Assembly (NCBI GenBank): GCA_028678715.1
Contig: JAJRCY010000013.1
Span: 1-11,492 of the forward strand
Source of the DNA: Methanomicrobiales archaeon
Lineage (GTDB): Archaea > Halobacteriota > Methanomicrobia > Methanomicrobiales > JACTUA01
Length of the DNA: 11,492 nucleotides
Direction: 5' to 3'
Shown: one piece after another, positions 712 to 11,492 of the stretch
Layout: every line of letters begins with the position of its first letter
Position numbering within the stretch: position 1 is the stretch's first letter
Notes under the pieces: generated by a model
The model's database searches: none
What the model saw: the letters and a program-made list of their open reading frames with translations, nothing else
Told to the model about the DNA's origin: nothing
Program-made: the position numbers and the translations under genes

Positions 712-1911
712 ATGACCGCCCGCGAGATGCTGCCGGGCATCTTCGAGGTGGGGGCCATTGACTGGGACCGGCGGCTCTTTGACGAGCTGATCCCCCTGCC
801 CCAGGGGACCAGCTACAACTCCTATCTCATCCGGGGATCAGAGAAGACCCTTCTCATCGATACCGTGGACCCTCCCTTTGCCCGGACCCTCCTTGACCAC
901 CTGGACTCCCTGGGGGTCAAGACCATCGATTACGTCGTGGCGAACCATGCCGAGCAGGACCACTCGGGGACCCTCGGGACCCTCCTCGCCCGCTACCCGA
1001 TGGCACGGGTGGTGACCAATGCGAAGTGCCGGGACATGCTGAAGGACCTTCTCCTGATCCCCGACGACCGGTTCCAGGTGATCCAGGACCGGGAGAAACT
1101 CTCCCTGGGGGACCGGACCGTGGAGTTCCTGTTCGCCCCCTGGGTCCACTGGCCGGAGACCATGCTCACCTACCTGCACGGGGACGGGGTCCTCTTCTCC
1201 TGCGACCTCTTCGGATCGCATTATGCCACCAGCGTGCTCTTCACCGACGAGGACCCGGTGGTGTACGAGGCGGCGAAGCGCTACTATGCCGAGATCATGA
1301 TGCCATTCCGGTCCTCCATCCGGGAGCACCTCCAGACGATCGCGCCTCTGGAGATCCGGATCATCGCCCCCAGCCATGGGCCGGTGTACCGGAAGCCGGC
1401 GTTCATCCTCTCCGCCTACCGGGACTGGGTCTCGGACCGGGTGGAGAACCGGGTGGTGATCCCCTATGTCTCCATGCACGGCTCCACGGCAGCCATGGTC
1501 CGATGCCTGGTGGATGCCCTGGTGGCGAGGAAGATCCCGGTGCAGCCCTTCAACCTCACGGCGACGGATACCGGGGAGCTCGCGAAGGCTCTCGTGGACG
1601 CGGCCACCCTTGTCGTGGCCACCCCCACCACCCTCTTCTCCCCGCATCCGAAGGCGATGTACGCGGTATACCTGGTGAACCTGCTCCGCCCCAAGATCCG
1701 CTGGGTCACCGTCATCGGATCCTACGGGTGGGGCGGGAAGACCCTGCAGATGATCAAGGAGAACCTCCCTCACCTGAAAGCCGAGTTCCTGGAGCCGGTG
1801 ATGGTGAAGGGCTTCCCGAAGGCGGAGGACCTGGCCGCACTGGACCGCCTTGCGGATGCCATCGCCGAGCGGCACCGTGGCCTGGGCAGTTTGGGGGGAG
1901 GTGGGCCATGA
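712..1911 (+). CDS. fprA: FprA-type A flavoprotein (F420H2 oxidase)
   Basis: A 399-residue flavodiiron protein that reduces O2 to water; in methanogens the electron donor is coenzyme F420H2. The N-terminal metallo-beta-lactamase-like domain (about 1-245) carries a complete diiron ligand set: H79-x-E81-x-D83 in the NHAEQDHSG motif, H146 in VHWPET, D165 in SCDLFG and H222 in PSHGP. A flavodoxin domain follows (about 247-390), with the FMN phosphate loop SMHGSTAAM at 254-262 and a later GSYGWGG at 337-343. Length and domain order are normal. The ATG at 712 has GGAGGG at 700-705. Its stop codon overlaps the start of the superoxide reductase gene (ATGA, 1908-1911), so the two are translationally coupled. 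F420H2 as donor is known for methanogen homologues and is not shown by the sequence itself. Confidence 0.95.
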   Translation: MTAREMLPGIFEVGAIDWDRRLFDELIPLPQGTSYNSYLIRGSEKTLLIDTVDPPFARTLLDHLDSLGVKTIDYVVANHAEQDHSGTLGTLLARYPMARVVTNAKCRDMLKDLLLIPDDRFQVIQDREKLSLGDRTVEFLFAPWVHWPETMLTYLHGDGVLFSCDLFGSHYATSVLFTDEDPVVYEAAKRYYAEIMMPFRSSIREHLQTIAPLEIRIIAPSHGPVYRKPAFILSAYRDWVSDRVENRVVIPYVSMHGSTAAMVRCLVDALVARKIPVQPFNLTATDTGELAKALVDAATLVVATPTTLFSPHPKAMYAVYLVNLLRPKIRWVTVIGSYGWGGKTLQMIKENLPHLKAEFLEPVMVKGFPKAEDLAALDRLADAIAERHRGLGSLGGGGP

Positions 1912-2285
1912 CCCAGCGGTACCAGGTGTACCGGTGCGGGGTCTGCGGGAACATGGTGGAGGTGACCCGTGTCGGGAGGGGCGAGCTGTCCTGCTGCGGG
2001 ACGCCCATGCTCCTCCTCCCGGAGCAGTCGGAGGAGGCCCTGGCCGAGAAGCACCGGCCGGTGGCGGAGACGCGGGACGGGACCCTCCGTGTGAAGGTGG
2101 GGGTGGTCCCCCACCCCATGGAGGACCGGCACTTCATCGAGTGGATCGACGTGGTCACGGACACCGGGGTAACGCGGAAGTACCTGCACCCCGGGGATAA
2201 CCCCGCAGCATTCTTCCCGATGGACGCCCCGCCCCTGAAGGTCCGTGCCCACTGCACCCTTCACGGGCTCTGGAAAGGGGCCTAG
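1908..2285 (+). CDS. dfx: Superoxide reductase (desulfoferrodoxin, two-centre type)
   Basis: A 125-residue desulfoferrodoxin that reduces superoxide to hydrogen peroxide in the cytoplasm, drawing electrons from rubredoxin. The N-terminal desulforedoxin domain holds the Fe(Cys)4 centre I ligands C10-x-x-C13 and C29-C30. The C-terminal domain holds the catalytic centre II ligands H49, H69, H75, C116 and H119, next to the E47-K48 pair that guides superoxide in. This spacing is the classical pattern for the two-centre class, and nothing is missing. The start overlaps the fprA stop (ATGA), with a GGGGGGAGGTGGG stretch immediately upstream as ribosome binding site. Together with fprA and the upstream rubredoxin it makes a compact O2/superoxide defence set. 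A 78-base gap leads to leuC with no clear terminator, so read-through is possible. Confidence 0.96.
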   Translation: MTQRYQVYRCGVCGNMVEVTRVGRGELSCCGTPMLLLPEQSEEALAEKHRPVAETRDGTLRVKVGVVPHPMEDRHFIEWIDVVTDTGVTRKYLHPGDNPAAFFPMDAPPLKVRAHCTLHGLWKGA

Positions 2286-2363: not shown

Positions 2364-3617
2364 ATGGGGCAGACACTCACCGAGAAGATCTTCTCGGCCA
2401 GATGCGGGTCGCCGGTCCGTGCCGGCGAGGTGGTGATGGCACCGGTGGACCGGGCCATGATCCACGACATCACCGGTCCGCTGGCCATCCAGAAGTTCCG
2501 GGAGATGGGGGGGACACGGGTCGCTGACCCGGAGGGCGTGGTGATCCTCTTTGACCACCAGGTGCCGGCCGATTCCATCGAGGCGGCCCAGAACCATGTC
2601 TTCATGCGGATGTTTGCCGAGGAGCAGGGGATCCGCAACCTGGATCTCAGGGAGGGCGTCTGCCACCAGGTGATGATGGAGAAGGGATACGCTGCCCCCG
2701 GCGAGATCGTGGTGGGGGCCGACTCCCACACCTGCATGTACGGGGCCGCGGGGGCCTTCGCCACCGGCATCGGGTCCACGGACATGGGTTTTGCCATGAA
2801 GTTCGGGGCCCTCTACTTCCGGGTGCCGGAGTCCACCCGGGTGGAGGTCTCCGGGACCTTCCCGAGGCGCGTGGGGCCGAAGGACCTGATCCTCGCGATC
2901 ACGGGCGACATCGGCGCGGACGGGGCCGCGTACCGGGCCATCGAGTTCGCGGGCGGGACGATCCGGGGAATGAATATGGCAGGAAGGATGACCTGCTGCA
3001 ACATGGCCATCGAGATGGGCGGAAAGACCGGCCTCGTGGCACCGGACAGGGTCACCTGGCAGTACCTGGCAGGCCGGCGGGAGATGAAGCCGTTCCCGCT
3101 GGACGCTGACCCGGATGCCGTCTATGCCGACCGGCGATCGTACGACGTCTCGGAGCTGGCTCCGCAGGTGGCGGTCCCCCACAACGTGGACCACGTGGTC
3201 GATGTCGGGGAGGTGGCGGGAACGCCCCTGGACCAGGTCTTCATCGGGTCGTGCACGAACGGCCGGTTCGAGGACATGCAGGAGGCAGCCGAGGTGCTGG
3301 GGGACCGGTCCTTCTCTGAGAAGGTCCGGGTCATCGTGATCCCCTCTTCGCGGGACGAGTACCTGAAGGCGCTCCGGGCCGGCCTTGTCGAGCGGTTCAC
3401 GGTCGCCGGGGCCCTGGTCGAGGCCCCCTGCTGCGGCCCCTGCATGGGCGGGGCCTTCGGCCTCCTGGCACCGGGTGAGGTCTCCCTCTCCACCTCCAAC
3501 CGGAACTTCCGGGGGAGGCAGGGCTCCGCGGAGGCGAAGGTGTACCTCTGCTCCCCGGCCACCGCCGCGGCGAGCGCTGTCCGTGGCGAGATCACGGATC
3601 CCCGGGAGGTGTCGTGA
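2364..3617 (+). CDS. leuC: 3-isopropylmalate dehydratase, large subunit (LeuC type)
   Basis: A 417-residue aconitase-family large subunit of the short archaeal LeuC/homoaconitase type. With the small subunit encoded next it would isomerise 2- to 3-isopropylmalate in leucine synthesis. The [4Fe-4S] ligands are C297 (FIGSCTNGR) and C357/C360 (CCGPCMGG). Other family signatures are DHQVPAD (64-70), [11 protein letters not shown] (118-128) and [12 protein letters not shown] (376-387). GAGGG at 2352-2356 precedes the ATG. The stop overlaps the leuD start by one base. Archaea carry near-identical paralogues for homoaconitate (AksD, coenzyme B pathway), and the same isomerase can serve citraconate in isoleucine synthesis. 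The assignment to leucine rests on the neighbours leuD and leuB and is moderately sure; the family is certain. Confidence 0.85.
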
Positions 3618-4171
3618 TGGCACGGAAGAAGACTGTGCTGAAGAGTGCCACTGCCATGGAGAATCCCCCCCGGGTCTGGAAATTCGGCGATGACATCGAC
3701 ACGGACCAGATCATCCCGGGCCGGTTCCTGACCATCTACGATCCCCGAGAGCTGGCCCTCCATGCCTTCGAGGGCACACGGGACGAGTTCGCCCGGCAGG
3801 CGAAGGAGGGTGACATCCTCGTGGCCGGGAGGAACTTCGGGTGCGGGTCGTCACGGGAGCATGCCCCCCTGGCCCTGAAGGGCGCCGGGATCCGGGTGAT
3901 CGTGGCCGAGTCCTTTGCCCGGATCTTCTACCGGAACGCCGTGAACGTGGGGCTGCTCCCGCTGGTCTGCAGGGATACGTCCGGTATCTCCGACGGCGAA
4001 GAGGCCGGGGTGGACCCCGGGGCGGGGGTGCTCGTGGCCGGTGGCCGGAGCCACCCGCTGGAGGAGGTGCCCCGGTTCCTGCAGGAGATCGTGGCTGCGG
4101 GTGGTCTCGTGGAGTACGCCCGGGGCCTGGAGGAGGTGACGACATGCCGAAAGACCACGCGGTCGCGGTGA
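3617..4171 (+). CDS. leuD: 3-isopropylmalate dehydratase, small subunit (LeuD type)
   Basis: A 184-residue small subunit carrying the swivelling substrate-recognition domain of the isomerase. Motifs seen are [17 protein letters not shown] (21-37), the recognition loop FLTIYDP (37-43), the invariant [18 protein letters not shown] (74-91) and [16 protein letters not shown] (98-113). From memory, the [11 protein letters not shown] form and a non-YLRT recognition loop resemble methanogen isopropylmalate isomerase more than homoaconitase. GGAGGTG at 3605-3611 supports the ATG at 3617; a GTG at 3614 is possible. An internal ATG at 3656 lies nearer the usual archaeal N-terminus but has no good ribosome binding site. 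The protein is about 15-20 residues longer than typical, with extra residues at both ends. The C-terminal tail overlaps leuB by 28 bases. Confidence 0.86.
4131..4139 (+). promoter_or_regulatory. Ribosome binding site of leuB inside leuD
   Basis: AGGAGGTGA, a near-perfect Shine-Dalgarno sequence, lies four bases before the ATG at 4144 and inside the leuD coding sequence. It fixes the leuB start and supports a real 28-base gene overlap. Confidence 0.85.
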
Positions 4172-5268
4172 TCCCGGGGGACGGGATCGGACCGGAGATC
4201 ATCACAGAAGGGCGGAAGGTGCTGGACGCCGCCGCCACACGGTACGGGTTCGGAATCGAGTGGGTGGAGCACGATATCGGGGCCGAGCGTTACCTGGCCA
4301 CGAAGCAGCTCCTGACCGGTGACGACCTGGACAGCCTCTCCGGCATGCGGGCCATCTACTTCGGGGCCATCGGGGACGAGCGGGTCCCGCCCGGGATCCT
4401 GGAGAAGGGGATCCTGCTCCGGCTCCGGTTCGCCCTGGACCTGTACGTGAACCTGAGGCCTGTCCGGCTCCTGCCCGGGGTCGTCACTCCTCTCGCGGGG
4501 AAGGGACCGAAGGATATTGACTTCGTGGTGGTCCGGGAGAACACGGAGGACTTCTACGTGGGGATCGGGGGCAGGTTCCGGGAGTCGGAACGGCGCACCT
4601 TCTCCGTGGAGCGGAAGCTGTACGAGCTCACGTTCTCCCTGGAGGCGGAGTCGGATGCCGACGAGATCGCCTACCAGATCGGGGTCATCTCCCGCGAGGG
4701 TGCCGAGCGGGTGATCCGCTATGCGTTTGACCTGGCCATGCGGCGGAGGAAGAAGGTCACCTCCGTCGACAAGGCGAACGTCCTCACTGACGTGTACGGG
4801 CTCTGGAGGGAGGTCTTCACCGGCGTGGCAAAGGGTTACCCGCAGGTGACCTCCGAGTTCAACTTCGTGGACGCGGTCACCATGTGGTTTGTGAAGAACC
4901 CGGAGTGGTTCGACGTGGTGGTGACCCCCAACATGTTCGGGGACATCATCACCGACCTGGGGGCCATGATCCAGGGCGGTCTTGGCCTGGCACCGGGCGG
5001 GAACATCAACCCGGACGGCACCTCCATGTTCGAGCCCATCCACGGCTCGGCCCCCAAGTACCGGGGCCTGGACGTGGCCAACCCCCTGGCCACCATCTGG
5101 GCGGGATCCATGCTCCTGGACCACCTTGGTGAGCACGAGGCGGCGGAAGGGGTGCTGGCAGCCATCGGGAAGTCCGTGACAGCCGGAGTCACCACCCGGG
5201 ACATGGGCGGGGCGGCCGGGACCCGCCAGGTGGGGGACTGGATCACGAAGGAACTGCTGAAGCGATAA
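4144..5268 (+). CDS. leuB: 3-isopropylmalate dehydrogenase-like beta-decarboxylating dehydrogenase
   Basis: A 374-residue enzyme of the isocitrate/isopropylmalate/tartrate dehydrogenase family, which oxidises and decarboxylates a 2-hydroxy acid using Mg2+ and NAD(P)+. Seen are the N-terminal [10 protein letters not shown] (10-19), substrate arginines R93/R95, R105 ([10 protein letters not shown]) and R131 ([10 protein letters not shown], with Y138), K210 (DKAN), metal-binding D267 and D271 (NMFGDIITD), and the cofactor loop [10 protein letters not shown] (297-306). The ERYL (48-51) and [10 protein letters not shown] features place it near tartrate dehydrogenase-like isopropylmalate dehydrogenases, not classical bacterial LeuB. 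K305-Y306 resemble the NADP-binding pair of NADP isocitrate dehydrogenases. Position in a leuCD operon argues for 3-isopropylmalate; homoisocitrate (AksF) or 3-methylmalate are alternatives. A seven-T tract follows 20 bases after the stop. Confidence 0.78.
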
Positions 5269-5670: not shown

Positions 5671-5720
5671 TCCTTCGGTCCGGAGAGTGTAGTGGATACA
5701 ACAGGGTCGGGAGGCCGCAT

Positions 5721-5783
5721 GCTCCCCGGTGATCCGTCCCGCAGGGGCTCGCCCGGGAGCACGGAATCCTCCTCCACTGGAGG
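5721..5783 (+). promoter_or_regulatory. Structured leader with paired ribosome binding site
   Basis: GCTCCC (5721-5726) pairs with GGGAGC (5755-5760). With C5727 bulged, two more pairs form between G5728-G5729 and C5753-C5754. A second hairpin, CCTCC-ACT-GGAGG (5771-5783), pairs the ribosome binding site GGAGG (5779-5783) itself. Translation of the following gene could be controlled by opening this stem. It is not a known riboswitch that I recognise. Confidence 0.35.
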
Positions 5784-5790
5784 CCTGGCA

Positions 5791-6222
5791 ATGACAACGC
5801 AACTCTTAAAGGATATGAGCGGTCTCATCTCCAGCTGGCAGCCCCGGAAGGTCTACCACTCCGCACCCCGGTACCTGGACGACCTGAAGAAGTTTGTCCA
5901 GGAGAAGATGGCGATGCCCCCGGCGCTCCGGTTCTCGGGGAAGAAGACGGCCGTCGAGTTCGTGGATGGCGGCACGCTGGACTTTGGCGTGAACCGCAAG
6001 ACCGCGGCTGCCACGGAATCCGTGGGGATCATCATGAAGAGGGATCTCATGACGCTCCCGGATGTCAAGCTCCTGATGGCGCAGATCCAGCAGGAGGAGG
6101 GGAAGTTCGGCGAGGTGATCCTGCTCGTCCTGGGCGAGATCAATGCAGACATGGAATCCAAGCTGCAGCACTTCCTGGAGGGGAGGAAGTCAAAGACCAC
6201 CTTCACGGTGATGAAGAAGTAA
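5791..6222 (+). CDS. Conserved-looking hypothetical protein, 143 aa
   Basis: I do not recognise this family. The product is soluble, with no signal peptide or membrane segment, and mixed alpha/beta. It has a helical N-terminus (1-40), a beta-rich middle with VEFVDGGTLDFGV (55-67) and VGIIMKRDL (78-86), a helix (91-103) and a hydrophobic strand EVILLVLGEIN (108-118), ending in a basic tail. The order D64, then strand with K83, then helix and a strand ending in GE is faintly like PD-(D/E)xK nuclease-fold proteins, but the acidic residue two before the lysine is absent (I81). GGAGG seven bases upstream supports the ATG at 5791. The frame is open upstream to an ATG at 5719, also with a GGGAGG, which would add a Ser/Gly/Pro-rich stretch. 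Third-position GC bias supports a real gene. Confidence 0.75.
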   Translation: MTTQLLKDMSGLISSWQPRKVYHSAPRYLDDLKKFVQEKMAMPPALRFSGKKTAVEFVDGGTLDFGVNRKTAAATESVGIIMKRDLMTLPDVKLLMAQIQQEEGKFGEVILLVLGEINADMESKLQHFLEGRKSKTTFTVMKK

Positions 6223-6570: not shown

Positions 6571-8595
6571 ATGAAAGAGAACACGCACCGCATTCCCTGC
6601 AGCATTCCCGTTGGGGGAGCTCTCCTCATCGCCGTCGCATTGACCCTCGGCATGGTGGCGCCGGTCTCTGCTGAGACCTACACCAGGGATGCCGATTTCG
6701 ACCAGGGGATCATGGTCGGGATCGATCACCTGATTCCGGACCAGCTCCAGCTCTCACCGCTGGCCTCCACCCTTCCCTATCTCTGGGTTCCCAATCTGGA
6801 GGGAACCGTCTCCCGGGTGGATATCAGGACAGGACGGGAACTGGGGAGGTACCGCGTGGTCCCGGCTAGACTGGCGGAGGGGGGGAGCCCCTCCCGCACG
6901 ACCGTCGATCTGCAGGGGAACTGCTGGGTGGGTACACGCCAGGCTGGCACTGTCGTGAAGATCGGCCTGCCTGAGGCCGGCGGGTGCCCGGACAGGAACA
7001 GCGACGGGATCATTACCACTTCACGGGATCGCGACGGGGACGGGGACATCACGGGGGATGAGCTGCTCCCGTGGGGAGGAGACGAGTGCGTCCTCCATGA
7101 GGTTGTCCTGATCCCGGGGAAGGAAGGCACCTATGTACCCGGCACCTACTCGGGAGGGTATGATACCAATTACTGGGGCACCTCCCCCCGGGGGCTTGCC
7201 GTAGACCGGCAGAACAACTTCTGGGCAGGTACCTGGAACAGCCACCGGTACTACTACATCGATGGCGTCACGGGCACCATCCTGAAAGAAGTGGATGTGA
7301 GCGCAGTCCCCCTCCCGGAGGGCGGGACCGTTTCCCACTGGGCCTACGGTGCGGTCATCGACCGTGACGGGATCCTCTGGTCTTCCAGCCTGTCGACCCA
7401 TATTCTCCGCCTGGATCCCTCGGACCTAAACAACGTCGAACTGACAGCCATCCCGATCCCGGAAGACTACGCCGAATCCGTGTACGGCATCGCGCTGGAT
7501 TATGCGGGCCATCTCTTTGTCACCGGCCATCTCTCCAATACCCTGGTCCGCGTCTCCCTTTCCACCCGTTCCGTGGAATGGAAGAGGACCCTCCAGGGAA
7601 TGGATGATGCCCGGGGTGTGGCCTGCACTCCCGACAACCATGTCTGGGTGGCCAGCTCCAATAACGGGAAGGTGATCGAGTACGATAACGAGGGGAACTA
7701 CCTGGGAGAGGTCTCCGGGTTCAATTTCCCTGTCGGGGTGGCGGTGGACGGGGTTGGCAAGCTCTGGGTTCCGGACCGGCTGATGGAACCCATCCACCGC
7801 GTCGATCCTGCGACAATGAAGAAGGATCTGTCCAGACGGCTCATCGGGAGCGTGGGCCACTACTCGTACAGCGACATGACGGGCATCATTGCCCGGTCCA
7901 TCACCACGAAGACCGGCACCTGGACCGTCATCGATGACAGCGGGGCACCCGGCACACCGTGGGAAACAGTCTCCTGGCATGGGGAGACTCCCCCGGGCAC
8001 GTCGGTCACCGTGCGGGTGCGGAGCTCGGAGGACGGGAAATCCTGGTCGGCCTGGGAGGCGGCGGAGAACGATGTTCCCCTGACGGCCACACCGGACGGG
8101 CGGCTCCTGCAGATCGAGGTCACGCTGAAAAACCTCTACGGGGACGTGTCACCGGTGCTCTATGACCTGACGGTGAGACCCGCCAACCTGCCCCCGGATA
8201 TCAGCACCGCGGCTCCCAGCATCGACTGCCTCTGGCCGCCGGACCACACGTTCGTGAACCTGGCGATTACGGGGGTCACGGACCCGGACGGCGACCCCGT
8301 GACGATCACGGTGGATGCCATCACCAGCGATGAACCCACCGCTACGGACGAAGGATCCGGCGGGAAGAGCCATGCGCCTGATGCCGAAGGAGTGGGCACA
8401 CTCGCCCCGCGGGTACGGGCGGAACGGTCCGGTGACGGCAATGGCAGGGTGTACGTTATCGCCTTCACCGCGAGCGACGGGAAACCCGGCGGATCCCGCA
8501 GCAGCTCCGTCTCCGTGTGCGTCCCCCATGACAAGAGCGATGGGTGCACCTGCACGGATGACGGGCAGGAGTACGATGCCACGGTCATCACCTGA
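6571..8595 (+). CDS. Secreted seven-bladed beta-propeller protein (Vgb/NHL-like) with C-terminal beta domains
   Basis: A 674-residue exported protein. A signal peptide is clear: a short basic N-terminus, a hydrophobic core (about 14-31) and likely cleavage after VSA at 34. Seven blade-like repeats follow, each centred on a pattern like LWV-x-N-x-x-G-T-V-x-R-V-D: near 71, 119, 218, 269, 315, 358 and 398. They resemble virginiamycin B lyase/NHL propellers. Between blades 2 and 3 sits an insert with two calcium-type loops, DRNSDGII (141-148) and DRDGDGDITGDE (153-164). Residues about 428-536 look like a beta-sandwich domain. Residues about 550-674 match a C-terminal module found in many secreted proteins: LWPPDH, DPDGDPVTIT, DEPT, RAERSGDGNGRVY, VCVPHD and a DDGQEYDAT end. 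Its role is unknown; surface binding or adhesion is more likely than lyase activity. Confidence 0.88.
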   Translation: MKENTHRIPCSIPVGGALLIAVALTLGMVAPVSAETYTRDADFDQGIMVGIDHLIPDQLQLSPLASTLPYLWVPNLEGTVSRVDIRTGRELGRYRVVPARLAEGGSPSRTTVDLQGNCWVGTRQAGTVVKIGLPEAGGCPDRNSDGIITTSRDRDGDGDITGDELLPWGGDECVLHEVVLIPGKEGTYVPGTYSGGYDTNYWGTSPRGLAVDRQNNFWAGTWNSHRYYYIDGVTGTILKEVDVSAVPLPEGGTVSHWAYGAVIDRDGILWSSSLSTHILRLDPSDLNNVELTAIPIPEDYAESVYGIALDYAGHLFVTGHLSNTLVRVSLSTRSVEWKRTLQGMDDARGVACTPDNHVWVASSNNGKVIEYDNEGNYLGEVSGFNFPVGVAVDGVGKLWVPDRLMEPIHRVDPATMKKDLSRRLIGSVGHYSYSDMTGIIARSITTKTGTWTVIDDSGAPGTPWETVSWHGETPPGTSVTVRVRSSEDGKSWSAWEAAENDVPLTATPDGRLLQIEVTLKNLYGDVSPVLYDLTVRPANLPPDISTAAPSIDCLWPPDHTFVNLAITGVTDPDGDPVTITVDAITSDEPTATDEGSGGKSHAPDAEGVGTLAPRVRAERSGDGNGRVYVIAFTASDGKPGGSRSSSVSVCVPHDKSDGCTCTDDGQEYDATVIT

Positions 8596-8716: not shown

Positions 8717-9850
8717 TCACGACCTGCTCCGCCGTTCCCGGTCCATGCAGGCGTTCAGCACCTGTTCCATGAGATCCAGCGCGCCTTCAACACCTGCCAG
8801 CGGGCGGGCCCGGAGCTGGATCCTGCCCCGGAGCGGCAGGGTGATCCCCACGAAAGCACCCTGCGGGTGCACCATCCGCTCGTAGGAGGATCCGAGGACC
8901 AGGTCCGGCTGCTCCCGGTCCAGCACGGCCCGGATCTCCTCAAGGGATGTCGTCTTCCCGACACGGAAACGGCTGGGACCGGGATCGTTCCGGCTGCCGA
9001 TGGCCGCGATCCCGCAGTCCAGGTACGTGGCAAGCATCTCTGCCGCGTACACCGAGGGTGCGGACATCCCGAAGATGGCAACGGTCGGCGGATCGTGCCT
9101 GCGCAGGTACTTATCGGCCGCATGGGTGATCCGCTCCTCCGCCCTCTCCACCTCCTCCAGCACCGGCCCCGGATCGCACCCCTCGCACTCCTCGCCAAGG
9201 GCACGGAAGGCCGCCGCAACCGCCGGAAGACCCAGCAGGGAGCCGATCCTCCGTCCTGCCCCGCCGGCCAGGTCGGGGTTCACCGACAGGCTCACCGGTG
9301 CTGCCCGGCCGAGCCGGTCCAGCGTGGTGTCGGTGAAGATCGTGGCCGGCGTTGTCCCGGAGAGCGCCAGCAGGCGTTCCGCCTCCCGCAGGTTCCCCCG
9401 GGAGAAGGGATCCGCCGGGTGGATACCATCCAGGTTCACACCCGGGGTCTCCGGGGCCACGGCCGGTGCAAGGGCCTCCATGGCGAGCCGGTAGCCCTCC
9501 TCCATGCCCCCGCAGAACCCCGGGCTGTCGACCACGAGAAGATCCCTGTCGGCGCCCACCCCGGCGGGATCCTCACCTGTCACGGCGGTCACGCAGGTGG
9601 TGACCACGGCAATCTTGAGATAGTGGGACGGGATGCCCTGCAGCACCTCGGAGAGGCGTGCAGCCCCCCCGAAGATCACCTCCCGTTCCTGAAGGAAGGT
9701 GCCGAAGAGCTCGCCGGGCATGAGGGTGGCAGGGTAGTAGTAGCACCCGCTGGACCCGTGGATTACAACGGCCAGGTCCTCAATCCCGGAGAGGCAGGAG
9801 ACGGCCCCTGCCATGGCGCACGGCCAGACAGGGTTGGTACAGTTACCCAT
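8717..9850 (-). CDS. Nitrogenase component 1-like protein, K/N-type subunit
   Basis: A 377-residue member of the NifD/K/E/N oxidoreductase family, last gene of the operon. The N-terminus has the K-type pattern: C11 in WPCAMAGA, HGSSGC with C36, and VVTTCVTAVTGED with C86. These are the three positions that bind the P-cluster-type iron-sulfur centre at the subunit interface. C4 and C19 are extra. VVDSPGFCGGMEEGY (106-120) is the conserved loop of this family. A second Rossmann-like domain starts near 255 (VAIFGMSAPS), and the C-terminus (about 338-370) has the usual P-x-R-G-R segment. It is much shorter than NifK (about 520). The ATG at 9850 has GGTGGAGG about 10 bases upstream and overlaps the preceding gene by 8 bases. 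Substrate unknown. Confidence 0.85.
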   Translation of the reverse strand: MGNCTNPVWPCAMAGAVSCLSGIEDLAVVIHGSSGCYYYPATLMPGELFGTFLQEREVIFGGAARLSEVLQGIPSHYLKIAVVTTCVTAVTGEDPAGVGADRDLLVVDSPGFCGGMEEGYRLAMEALAPAVAPETPGVNLDGIHPADPFSRGNLREAERLLALSGTTPATIFTDTTLDRLGRAAPVSLSVNPDLAGGAGRRIGSLLGLPAVAAAFRALGEECEGCDPGPVLEEVERAEERITHAADKYLRRHDPPTVAIFGMSAPSVYAAEMLATYLDCGIAAIGSRNDPGPSRFRVGKTTSLEEIRAVLDREQPDLVLGSSYERMVHPQGAFVGITLPLRGRIQLRARPLAGVEGALDLMEQVLNACMDRERRSRS

Positions 9851-10883
9851 GGATCGCCCGCCTCCACCGGTGCAGCAGCTGCCGGATCCCGGTCGTCCCC
9901 ACCGGAAGGGGATCGGGGAGGGGCACCGCGGTCCCGTGCCGATCAACCCTGAGATCAAGGACCGCCGCCAGCTCCTGCACCAGCGCCGCGCCCTCCCCTG
10001 CCCCGTCACCCCTGTCACACCACACCCGTGACCCCGACAGATCCGCATAGCAGGAGAGCATCTCCTGCTGCACCTCCTCTTCCCTGCGAACCGCTCCTGC
10101 GGCGTCCATGCCCAGTATCCTCCCGGCCCGTGCCAGGAAGAGAAGGGTTCCGGCAAGGCCCACCGGGTAGGAGGGCAGGTACGGGGTTCTGAACCGTCCG
10201 CCCAGCCAGACCCCCAGCGGCGCAAGATCGGGCTCCCGCAGCACATTGAGGCGGGATACGCCCAGCCGGGGAAGCGTGGCCCAGTCCATGCCCCTCACCA
10301 GCCGGAGATCAACCCGGGCGCCCAGGAGAGAGAGCAGCCGGCGGACCTCCCCGCCGTGGGCATCCACCTCGTACTCCAGGTTCTTCTCCCCGACGAGCAC
10401 CACGCCGCCGGGTCCGTCCCCCGGTTCCCCGGCACAGCCGGCTATCGCCTGGAGGGCCCGGTGGAACCCGTCCCGGAAGACGCCGCCCAGGAACCCGGCG
10501 GTGGGGATATGGACCACCGGCACATCCCAGCCCCTGCTGCAGACCGCACCGGTATCGTCGCCGATCGTCTCCACGACACAGGTGGAGAGCACGAACACCA
10601 CTGGCGGATCCAGGGCAGCGGCATCCCGGATGGCCTCTGCGAGCGCCCCCTCGCCCCCGAAGATCACCCCGCTCTCGTCCAGGTCCGTGGAGGCGAGGCG
10701 GGGCAGCACCACCGTGTCGTTCTCCAGGCAGGTGGCATGGAAGAGGGAGAGGTTGTGCTGGGCGCACCCGGGCGGGCCGTGGATCACGGTGACGGCGTCC
10801 CGGAACTGGGTGGACACCGACAGGGCCCCCGTGAGGGTGCAGCCCTCAAGCCGCGAACCGGAGGGCAAGGGCTTCAAGGTCAT
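9843..10883 (-). CDS. Nitrogenase component 1-like protein, D/E-type subunit
   Basis: A 346-residue paralogue of the next gene's product. It has D-type signatures: C15 in [18 protein letters not shown] with C40, and [12 protein letters not shown] with C102, matching the three P-cluster cysteines of NifD. A second domain starts near 160 (VVLVGEKN). In NifD the FeMo-cofactor cysteine lies in a segment aligned by eye with [10 protein letters not shown] (210-219) here, which has no cysteine. The protein is also about 130 residues shorter than NifD. It therefore probably lacks a nitrogenase-type cofactor, as in protochlorophyllide reductase and CfbD. The ATG at 10883 lies inside the end of the H-like gene (38-base overlap) and has no strong ribosome binding site, suggesting coupled translation. 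It is distinct from CfbD as I recall it, which lacks the first cysteine. Confidence 0.84.
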
Positions 10884-11492
10884 CCATCGAGAGCGGGGTG
10901 GGGATCACCAGATCTGTGTTCGACATCACCGCCCGGGCCAGCCCGCGGTACACCTGTGCCTGGGAGGAATCCGGGGCGTACTCGATGACGGTCCGCTTGC
11001 GCACCTCGGCCATCTGCACGACGCGGTCCCGGGGGATGAAGGCGACCAGGCGCGATCCAATCCGTTCCGCGAACTCCCGGACCAGCGCCTCCTCGTCGGG
11101 CATGGTGGCGGAGTTGCAGATCACCCCGGCGAGCCGGCATTTCGACCTGCCCCGGCCCGAGAGGCGGGCGATGGCCCGGCAGATGTTGTTCGCTGCGTAG
11201 AGGGACATCAGCTCCCCCGAGGTGACCAGGTAGATCTCCTCGGCATAGCCCTCCCGCATCGGCATCGCAAAGCCCCCGCAGACCACGTCGCCCAGCACGT
11301 CGTAGACCACCACGTCGGCGGTGAGGGAACCGAGCTGTTCGAGGAGCTGGAAGGTGGCGATGATGCCCCGGCCGGCACACCCCACGCCGGGCTCGGGGCC
11401 GCCGGCCTCCACGCACCGGACACCCTGGTACCCGGTGAAAACCACCTGATCGGCCGTGAGGCCCTCGTCCCTGCCGTCCCGGAGCTGGTCCA
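10846..11492 (-). CDS. Nitrogenase reductase-like iron protein (NifH family), 5' end cut by window
   Basis: The C-terminal 214 residues of a NifH-family ATPase, which passes electrons one at a time from its [4Fe-4S] cluster to a component-1 partner. Both cluster cysteines are visible: GVGCAGRGI (codon 11377-11379, equivalent to NifH Cys97) and [14 protein letters not shown] (codon 11278-11280, equivalent to Cys132). [30 protein letters not shown] and the later VICNS are typical. About 60 N-terminal residues with the Walker A loop lie beyond the right edge, so intactness cannot be judged. It is the first visible gene of the operon, overlapping the D-like gene by 38 bases. The sequence is close to NifH itself, but the partners show the operon is not a nitrogenase. 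CfbC is an alternative identity. Confidence 0.9.

What the first reader, a model, noticed from the sequence alone, without database searches (positions are those of the whole stretch)
8717..11492. Three-gene nitrogenase-like operon (H, D-like, K-like) that fits neither nitrogenase nor CfbCD
The sequence shows an overlapping H-D-K gene order with one NifH-family reductase and two different component-1 paralogues: one with HGPPGC (D/E type), one with HGSSGC (K/N type). From established knowledge, F430 synthesis uses CfbC plus a single CfbD, and true nitrogenase subunits are much longer (about 480 and 520 residues) than the 346 and 377 here. The inference is a separate two-electron reductase of the uncharacterised nitrogenase-like groups, possibly acting on a tetrapyrrole, a thioether or another small molecule. 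It is the best candidate in the window for an undescribed system.
Basis: partly seen in the sequence, partly recalled or inferred. Interest (0 to 1): 0.75.

Follow-up and report, generated by a model that had tools for sequence, protein, structure and literature searches.

The report
CfbC-linked second nitrogenase-like reductase, Methanomicrobiales
In most methane-producing archaea of one order, the gene for the ATP-driven electron donor of coenzyme F430 synthesis overlaps genes for an extra, unstudied two-subunit nitrogenase-like enzyme that may reduce a related ring-shaped cofactor.

Summary
The three genes are real and overlap as described; H is cut by the contig end. H is not a separate reductase: it is CfbC, the electron donor of F430 synthesis. 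In 54 of 61 Methanomicrobiales genomes one protein passes the CfbC cut-off; in 40 of 40 distinct loci that held both genes, the D-like gene follows it. CfbD is another gene, seen in a cfbA-E-D-B row. D' and K' are further component-1 paralogues: they reach no NCBIfam cut-off, form their own clades, and all 81 K' matches in a phylum sample lie in this order. Genus g38 and G049 lack both but keep CfbC and CfbD, so the pair is dispensable for F430. Unlike CfbD it keeps all six P-cluster cysteine positions, without known FeMo-co ligands. Nearest relatives are H-D fusion/N pairs, several beside CobN or ChlI-like genes. I conclude that D'K' is a second CfbC-driven reductase, probably of a tetrapyrrole. 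Substrate and activity are not shown.

The parts
10846..11490 (-). cfbC (H): ATP-dependent Fe-protein-type reductase subunit, N-terminus cut by the contig end
   Evidence: NF033200 F430_CfbC is the best family at 303 bits on the fragment. The same-genus full-length homologue L122:12213-13028, 95.3% identical over 214 aa, passes its cut-off, 408.8 against 402
9843..10883 (-). D' (alpha-type component-1 paralogue, 346 aa, domain III mostly missing)
   Evidence: PF00148 7.1e-50; alpha side of the tree, sister to fusD 100/98; AF2 model pLDDT 89
8717..9850 (-). K' (beta-type component-1 paralogue, 377 aa)
   Evidence: PF00148 3e-40; own clade 100/100; AF2 model pLDDT 92.5
10846..10883 (-). 38-nt overlap of the cfbC end with the D' start (translational coupling inferred)
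   Evidence: overlap of 17-41 nt in 37 of 40 distinct loci; three (L115, L124, L126) have gaps of 115-341 nt
9843..9850 (-). 8-nt overlap of the D' end with the K' start
10839..10841 (-). D' Cys15 codon, position of nitrogenase alpha-Cys62
   Evidence: Cys in 159 of 160 rows, 1 gap (120 database proteins and 40 loci; the two sets overlap)
10764..10766 (-). D' Cys40 codon (HGPPGC), position of alpha-Cys88
   Evidence: Cys in 160 of 160 rows
10578..10580 (-). D' Cys102 codon, position of alpha-Cys154
   Evidence: Cys in 160 of 160 rows
9818..9820 (-). K' Cys11 codon, position of beta-Cys70
   Evidence: Cys in 148 of 160 rows, 12 gaps, no substitution
9743..9745 (-). K' Cys36 codon (HGSSGC), position of beta-Cys95
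   Evidence: Cys in 159 of 160 rows, 1 gap
9593..9595 (-). K' Cys86 codon, position of beta-Cys153
   Evidence: Cys in 159 of 160 rows, 1 gap

Best explanation
The operon encodes CfbC plus two component-1 subunits, D' and K', that together form a second ATP-dependent reductase beside CfbCD. Proposed mechanism: (1) the CfbC dimer takes an electron from ferredoxin on its [4Fe-4S] cluster; (2) ATP-driven docking on D'K' passes it to an iron-sulfur cluster at the D'/K' interface, held by three cysteines from each subunit (a P-cluster-type ligand set); (3) the electron goes straight to an organic substrate in the cavity that other family members fill with FeMo-co or the L-cluster and DPOR fills with protochlorophyllide. 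Here the cavity would be open because D' lacks most of domain III and the known cofactor ligands. The substrate is most likely a tetrapyrrole, made or recycled beside F430. SHOWN: gene order and overlap; H is the one protein per genome over the CfbC cut-off; CfbD is separate; D' and K' are present or absent together in 224 of 232 genomes; the Cys pattern; the nearest relatives. INFERRED: the D'K' heterotetramer, the cluster type, docking by CfbC, the tetrapyrrole substrate. NOT SHOWN: any activity, or which tetrapyrrole.
Against: No experiment. Foldseek's own ranking does not put BchB first: for D' it is NifE (9i0f_A, E 1.5e-17, TMq 0.67; BchB follows at 2.3e-17, TMq 0.69), for K' VnfK (7adr_B, E 1.1e-20, TMq 0.84; BchB 4.4e-19, TMq 0.81); so the fold evidence for DPOR is mixed, and chain length may favour BchB. 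The tetrapyrrole inference rests on the partner CfbC, on neighbours of the sister system and on fold, not on D'K' neighbours of known function: TrkH-like, phosphoribulokinase, flavodiiron and LeuC-LeuD-IDH-type genes say nothing of tetrapyrroles. DPOR, COR and CfbCD have [4Fe-4S] clusters, so a full P-cluster ligand set is odd for a tetrapyrrole reductase. The sister fusN keeps one of the three beta cysteines. K' grouping with CfbD and fusN (90/92, not starred) involves long branches, and K' moves when these are left out. D' has a common late His (H338, 30 of 43 rows), so another metal ligand is not excluded. The CfbC cut-off is narrow: NifH-like proteins of other clusters reach 390 bits and the D'-linked H of G004 scores 401.
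Confidence: 0.45

Rival explanations
1. D'K' is an accessory or alternative catalytic component of F430 synthesis itself: with CfbC it takes over or improves one of the reductions of Ni-sirohydrochlorin a,c-diamide in this order.
For: Shares the one CfbC over the cut-off, with overlapping genes; retained in most of an order that lives by methanogenesis.
Against: Genomes without D'K' keep CfbD (10 of 10 tested over the cut-off). Of ten genomes without D'K' tested for CfbC, eight are over the cut-off (seven of g38, and G049); G149 has 331 bits with an inner stop and G116 (76% complete) no match. CfbD is over the cut-off in 57 of 61 genomes, nearly all of which have D'K'. Review passages describe CfbC and CfbD alone as the reductase system (PMC7242693, passages).
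Confidence: 0.17
2. D'K' is a NifEN-like scaffold that holds or passes the [8Fe-9S-C] cluster to the MCR activation complex.
For: D' scores best with NifE among NCBIfam models (82.9 bits) and with NifE in Foldseek and PDB sequence searches. L-cluster-like FeS clusters occur in the MCR activation complex (PMC12176620, passages).
Against: The D' rows printed have no counterpart of alpha-Cys275 or alpha-His442 and lack most of domain III, and no further Cys is common in D' beyond C15, C40, C102, C115. 82.9 bits is far under the NifE cut-off of 505. D'K' is absent from g38 and K' had no match outside the order in a sample of 392 genomes, though MCR activation is needed in all methanogens.
Confidence: 0.08
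3. D'K' does not catalyse: it is a redox sensor or a holding partner that sequesters CfbC and so controls electron flow to CfbD.
For: Coupling with CfbC by gene overlap; dispensable; no known substrate-binding metal site.
Against: Unsubstituted cysteines over 160 rows per subunit suggest electron transfer; both subunits keep the fold core.
Confidence: 0.13
4. D'K' is a C-S-cleaving reductase of the methylthio-alkane reductase kind, or a nitrogenase.
For: Six P-cluster Cys as in MarDK and NifDK; gene order H-D-K.
Against: No known FeMo-co/L-cluster ligands and most of domain III missing. The one MarD reference groups with another protein (100/100) and D' with fusD. I saw no nifB, nifX or sulfhydrylase gene in the maps, unlike the Chlorohelix Mar-like cluster; those maps were not searched for them by family.
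Confidence: 0.04

Closest known systems
[quoted passage not shown]
   Same: The H gene is CfbC by curated cut-off (same-genus homologue), one per genome over the cut-off.
   Different: D' 40 and K' 35 bits against the CfbD cut-off of 268; two different subunits; three P-cluster-type Cys per subunit, whereas 30 of 30 CfbD have Ser at the first; dispensable.
H-D fusion + N-like pairs (Dos Santos 2012, 'nifH and nifE-like genes fused'; no function named in the section read; that they are the same proteins is my reading)
   Same: Nearest relatives in my trees: D' sister to the fusion's D part 100/98; K' in one group with fusN and CfbD 90/92.
   Different: There the reductase is fused to D, fusN keeps one of the three beta Cys (rows printed), and the genes sit with an ABC transporter and chelatase-type genes. 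fusN is in 19 of 232 genomes of the order.
DPOR, BchL-BchN-BchB (and COR, BchX-BchY-BchZ)
   Same: Nearest solved fold for both subunits by VIA-align, not by Foldseek E-value; compact chains without a known cofactor site.
   Different: NCBIfam BchB 39 bits against a cut-off of 490; DPOR has a [4Fe-4S] interface cluster (PMC12552129, passages).
MarHDK (methylthio-alkane reductase)
   Same: Six cysteines at the P-cluster positions.
   Different: Mar holds an [Fe8S9C] cluster; D' lacks the domain and ligands for it; separate clades, with one Mar-like reference.
NifDK / NifEN
   Same: Fold; H-D-K order; alpha/beta pairing; best single-model scores are to NifE (D') and NifK (K').
   Different: 346 and 377 aa; no alpha-Cys275/His442 in the rows printed; all curated cut-offs missed by far.

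Membership tests
CfbC (H gene) | Passes NF033200 F430_CfbC (cut-off 402 bits) | tested here: met
   408.8 bits for the full-length same-genus homologue, 95.3% identical to the window fragment. The fragment itself, positions 63-259 only, scores 303, so the cut-off cannot be applied to it. In G004 the homologue scores 401.2, just under
CfbD (D', K') | Passes TIGR03282 (cut-off 268.4) | tested here: not met
   D' 40.4 and K' 34.8 bits; a separate CfbD over the cut-off in 57 of 61 genomes
CfbD (D', K') | Two of the three alpha-type Cys (homodimer, [4Fe-4S]) | tested here: not met
   30 of 30 CfbD have Ser at the first Cys position, where D' has Cys in 159 of 160 rows. Oligomeric state and cluster were not testable
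Mo/V/Fe nitrogenase (NifDK etc.) | FeMo-co ligands alpha-Cys275 and alpha-His442 and full-length domain III | tested here: not met
   Absent in the three D' rows printed; no common Cys beyond C15, C40, C102, C115 in 43 D' rows; NifD/NifK/Vnf/Anf cut-offs not reached
NifEN maturase | Passes NifE/NifN models (505 / 327 bits) | tested here: not met
   D' NifE 82.9; K' NifN 21.2; NifE clade excludes D'
DPOR/COR | Passes BchB/BchN/BchY/BchZ models | tested here: not met
   D' best BchB 39.4 against 490; no such model listed for K'
DPOR/COR | Tetrapyrrole-binding cavity at the interface | not testable with these tools
   Only single-chain models
Methylthio-alkane reductase | Groups with MarD/MarK and has an L-cluster site | tested here: not met
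   MarD with L038 ivD 100/100, D' with fusD; most of domain III missing. Only one Mar-like reference cluster was used
P-cluster-type component 1 | Three ligand Cys in each of two subunits | tested here: met
   Whether a P-cluster is built is not testable with these tools
H-D fusion/N branch (sister) | D part fused to the reductase domain | tested here: not met
   H and D' are separate genes in 40 of 40 distinct loci with both

The most novel reading that the evidence does not exclude
CfbC-D'-K' is an ATP-dependent repair reductase for coenzyme F430 or its late Ni-hydrocorphin precursors: it removes double bonds formed by oxidation (12,13-didehydro-F430 is the oxidation product I recall). It would then be a tetrapyrrole reductase wired through a P-cluster-type cluster, a combination not described in the passages I read. 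In many loci the CfbC neighbourhood also holds oxygen-defence genes (flavodiiron protein, 26 loci; desulfoferrodoxin-like, 8 loci; the latter named by my reading), but these also stand by CfbC where D'K' is missing.
Probability: 0.12. Interest if true: 0.85.

Novelty: new variant of a known kind. Interest (0 to 1): 0.6.

Why it matters
F430 synthesis is treated as complete with CfbA-E. Here the pathway's electron donor is tied, by overlapping genes, to an unassigned two-subunit enzyme in most of a methanogen order, with a genus that lacks it as a natural control. It is a testable case of one Fe protein serving two catalytic components. It may also be an intermediate kind in the Nif family: a full P-cluster ligand set without the known active-site cluster ligands, in a compact body like that of tetrapyrrole reductases.

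Tried and rejected
Rejected: nitrogenase, NifEN, CfbD and Mar membership (see Membership tests). Rejected: D' and K' as a private duplication of each other; the one-clade tree has p-AU 0.0165, though long branches are in play and these groups were named after I had seen the tree. K' held with the K side was also disfavoured in the first tree (p-AU 0.0368), whereas K' lies on the K side when CfbD, fusN, BchN and BchY are left out or when more fusN rows are added and BchN and BchY left out: the deep place of K' is unsure.

Locus L210 (G045), fetched as a fusion locus, holds no fusion: my reading of a partial hit was wrong. BchY and BchN references have very long branches, so the place of DPOR/COR against D'K' is not resolved.

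Considered: functional replacement of D'K' by the fusion/N pair. fusN is in 8 of 12 g38 genomes (which lack D'K') and in 11 of the other 220, ten of which also have a strong D'. This is one genus, so suggestive only. CfbD bit scores are 511-571 in eight g38 genomes against at most 520, but G049 and G149 (494, 467) break any link to D'K' loss; not used.

Papers: searches listed no paper that I could recognise as being on this operon; open-licence library only, so absence from print is not shown. Seen: PMC3464626 (section 11 whole, other passages); PMC12176620, PMC9391474, PMC8351635, PMC8399215, PMC12552129, PMC7242693 (passages). Others: search listing only.
Full report
1. What is there. The window is one whole contig (C13) of an unnamed Methanomicrobiales draft genome, 56.5% complete. 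Three genes lie on the minus strand at its right end: H (10846-11490, cut by the contig end), D' (9843-10883, 346 aa) and K' (8717-9850, 377 aa). Pfam places H in Fer4_NifH and both others in Oxidored_nitro. The genes overlap by 38 and 8 nt.

2. H is CfbC. On NCBIfam the best family of the H fragment is F430_CfbC at 303 bits for positions 63-259. The full-length homologue of the same genus (G001, locus L122), 95.3% identical over the fragment, passes the curated cut-off, 408.8 against 402. Over 61 genomes of the order, 54 have a protein above this cut-off, one row per genome. The margin is narrow: NifH-like proteins of other clusters reach 390 bits, and G004's D'-linked H has 401.2. I fetched 40 regions from 39 of the 61 genomes, chosen for spread. 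Together with the five titled contigs and the window, 42 loci hold H and D'. Two pairs are the same contigs, so 40 are distinct, and in 40 of 40 D' follows H on the same strand: 37 with an overlap of 17-41 nt, three with gaps of 115-341 nt. L008 has D' but its contig starts there. Regions with an H match but no D' beside it were L117 (G049, no D' or K' in the genome at 1e-20) and L123, a G002 contig with another nif-like set.

3. CfbD is elsewhere. TIGR03282 finds a CfbD above its cut-off in 57 of 61 genomes, in other places than D' and K'. In five of the regions read (L190, L191, L196, L197, L198) it stands in a row with what I read as cfbA, cfbE and cfbB; in L190 all four pass their curated cut-offs; the others I matched by similarity. 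I saw no cfbC in those rows. So the F430 pathway is complete only with the CfbC that heads our operon. In G000 no CfbD passed the cut-off, which means little at 56.5% completeness; G001 and G002 of the same genus have it.

4. D' and K' are additional. They score 40 and 35 bits against CfbD's 268, and miss every Nif, Vnf, Anf and Bch cut-off listed by a wide margin. In a tree of 73 component-1 proteins each is one clade at 100/100. With seven fusion pairs added and BchN and BchY left out, an alpha side and a beta side separate at 98/94; D' (100/99) is on the alpha side as sister to the D part of H-D fusion proteins at 100/98, and K' (100/100) is on the beta side with fusN and CfbD at 90/92. The place of K' depends on long branches: in the first tree it fell, with CfbD and fusN, apart from the K side, and it joins the K side when these rows are left out. 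I take the two subunits as an alpha/beta pair, not a private duplication (p-AU 0.0165 against one clade).

5. Distribution. By my reading of the tables at E < 1e-90, of 232 genomes of the order 196 have both D' and K', 28 have neither, 4 have K' only (G089, G090, G109, G190) and 4 D' only (G098, G128, G173, G182); seven of these eight are drafts of 210 or more contigs, and G128 (10 contigs) has a weaker K' match of 2.3e-71. Of the 28 some are incomplete drafts; the clear cases are all 12 genomes of genus g38, several of them 99% complete, and G049 (99%), with both of g35 (85% and 62% complete). The class holds the same 232 genomes. In a sample of 392 genomes of the phylum, 81 have K' at 1e-35 and all 81 lie in this order; of the 311 without a match only 20 are listed, two in the order (G049, G211) and 18 from other families. 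D' was not searched outside the order by genome; the contig scan gave five Methanomicrobiales loci and two Planctomycetota at 28% identity, and the named ones among the 120 best hits shown in each are methanogens of this order. Seven of seven g38 genomes tested and G049 have CfbC over the cut-off; G149 of g35 has a match of 331 bits with an inner stop, and G116 none. Ten of ten genomes without D'K' that were tested have CfbD over the cut-off. In the four g38 regions read (L192-L195) the gene after CfbC is the 139-140-aa gene that follows K' in other genomes of f5, so the pair is present or absent as a unit. From contig lengths I recall G200 as Methanospirillum hungatei, G038 as Methanoculleus marisnigri and G024 as Methanoregula boonei; no call names them.

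6. Ligands. Aligned with NifD, NifE, MarD and BchN, D' has cysteines at all three alpha positions of the interface cluster and K' at all three beta positions. Over 120 database proteins and 40 loci per subunit (overlapping sets) no other residue occurs at these six positions; the only misses are gaps: D' 1, 0, 0 and K' 12, 1, 1 of 160. CfbD has Ser at the first position in 30 of 30. In the D' rows printed there is no residue for alpha-Cys275 or alpha-His442, and the chain ends after a remnant of domain III; a late His (H338) occurs in 30 of 43 rows, so another ligand is not excluded. D' also has an extra Cys115 (156 of 160) and K' an extra Cys4 (145 of 160, 13 gaps, 2 Ser), of unknown use. The Mar structure paper lists six cysteines for its P-cluster and says that BchNB and CfbD do not have all cysteines conserved (PMC12552129, passages). 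So D'K' combines the P-cluster ligand set with the absence of the known active-site cluster ligands. Dos Santos et al. describe nitrogenase-like clades with three Cys in each subunit and without FeMo-co ligands (section 11 read), so the Cys pattern as such has precedent; whether their tree holds these proteins I could not see.

8. The sister system. Eight of the nine regions fetched hold the H-D fusion (L210 does not); seven also show a fusN frame (L214 ends first). In L206 the neighbours are a CobN/Mg-chelatase (PF02514, 1240 bits), a ChlI-like AAA protein, an AAA-VWA protein, CbiK (PF06180), a FecCD permease, an ABC ATPase and a binding protein. By similarity, the permease and ATPase recur in all eight, the CobN-like protein in five (L206, L207, L209, L211, L212) and the CbiK-like one in three (L206, L209, L213); L208 has a CobO/BtuR gene. 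Regions were of limited length, so misses mean little. That is a metal-tetrapyrrole context. fusN occurs in 19 of 232 genomes, 8 of them among the 12 g38 genomes without D'K'. It coexists with a strong D' in ten other genomes, so replacement is at most suggested.

9. Mechanism. Taken together: one CfbC serves two catalytic components, CfbD and D'K'. The gene overlap keeps CfbC and D' in step. D'K' should take electrons at a six-Cys interface cluster and hand them directly to an organic substrate in a cavity without metal cofactor. A tetrapyrrole is the best-supported substrate class because the donor and the nearest relatives belong to tetrapyrrole chemistry and the fold is compatible with it, but none of this is direct. 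D'K' is not needed for F430 synthesis as such, which points to a side reaction: modification, salvage or repair.

10. Novelty. Eight paper searches listed nothing that I could recognise as being on this operon. The library is open-licence papers only. I rate it a new variant of a known kind.

Noticed in passing
L189:11450-12703, L190:6855-8129, L191:7927-9117; also L020-L028, L030-L033, L035, L036: A single component-1 paralogue of about 390-424 aa (motif HGPKGCVYHINYILG) close to the cfb genes in these three regions and present in both same-genus genomes (L199, L200); nine rows form their own clade 100/100 on the alpha side. Best NCBIfam NifE 163 bits, under the cut-off. No partner identified.
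   Followed up: partly
L206-L209, L211-L214: NifH-NifE-like fusion protein, mostly followed by a NifN-like protein, with a FecCD-type ABC transporter and, in part of the loci, CobN, ChlI-like, AAA-VWA and CbiK genes: a possible uncharacterised tetrapyrrole metallation/reduction system.
   Followed up: partly
window 2364-5268: LeuC-LeuD-isocitrate/isopropylmalate-dehydrogenase-type trio; in many relatives it converges on K'. The dehydrogenase passes PRK03437 (3-isopropylmalate dehydrogenase), 432 against 393; the two dehydratase subunits pass only subfamily models.
   Followed up: no
window 712-2285: Flavodiiron-type protein gene (flavorubredoxin models, under cut-off) followed by a frame that I read as desulfoferrodoxin (not scanned); in relatives, g38 included, such genes and a phosphoribulokinase-like gene stand upstream of cfbC.
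   Followed up: partly
window 5692-6222 and 6571-8595: A 176-aa and a 674-aa protein (the latter with repeats that I read as beta-propeller-like and a signal-like start) without any NCBIfam match at 0.001.
   Followed up: no
L192:7068-7490 and relatives: A 139-140-aa protein without NCBIfam match at 1e-15 follows K', or CfbC where D'K' is missing, in one family.
   Followed up: no
G046, G126, G127, G031, G011, G036 and others: Some K' matches span one stop codon in the genome search; it may lie at the gene's edge or mark a broken copy. Not examined, nothing mended.
   Followed up: no
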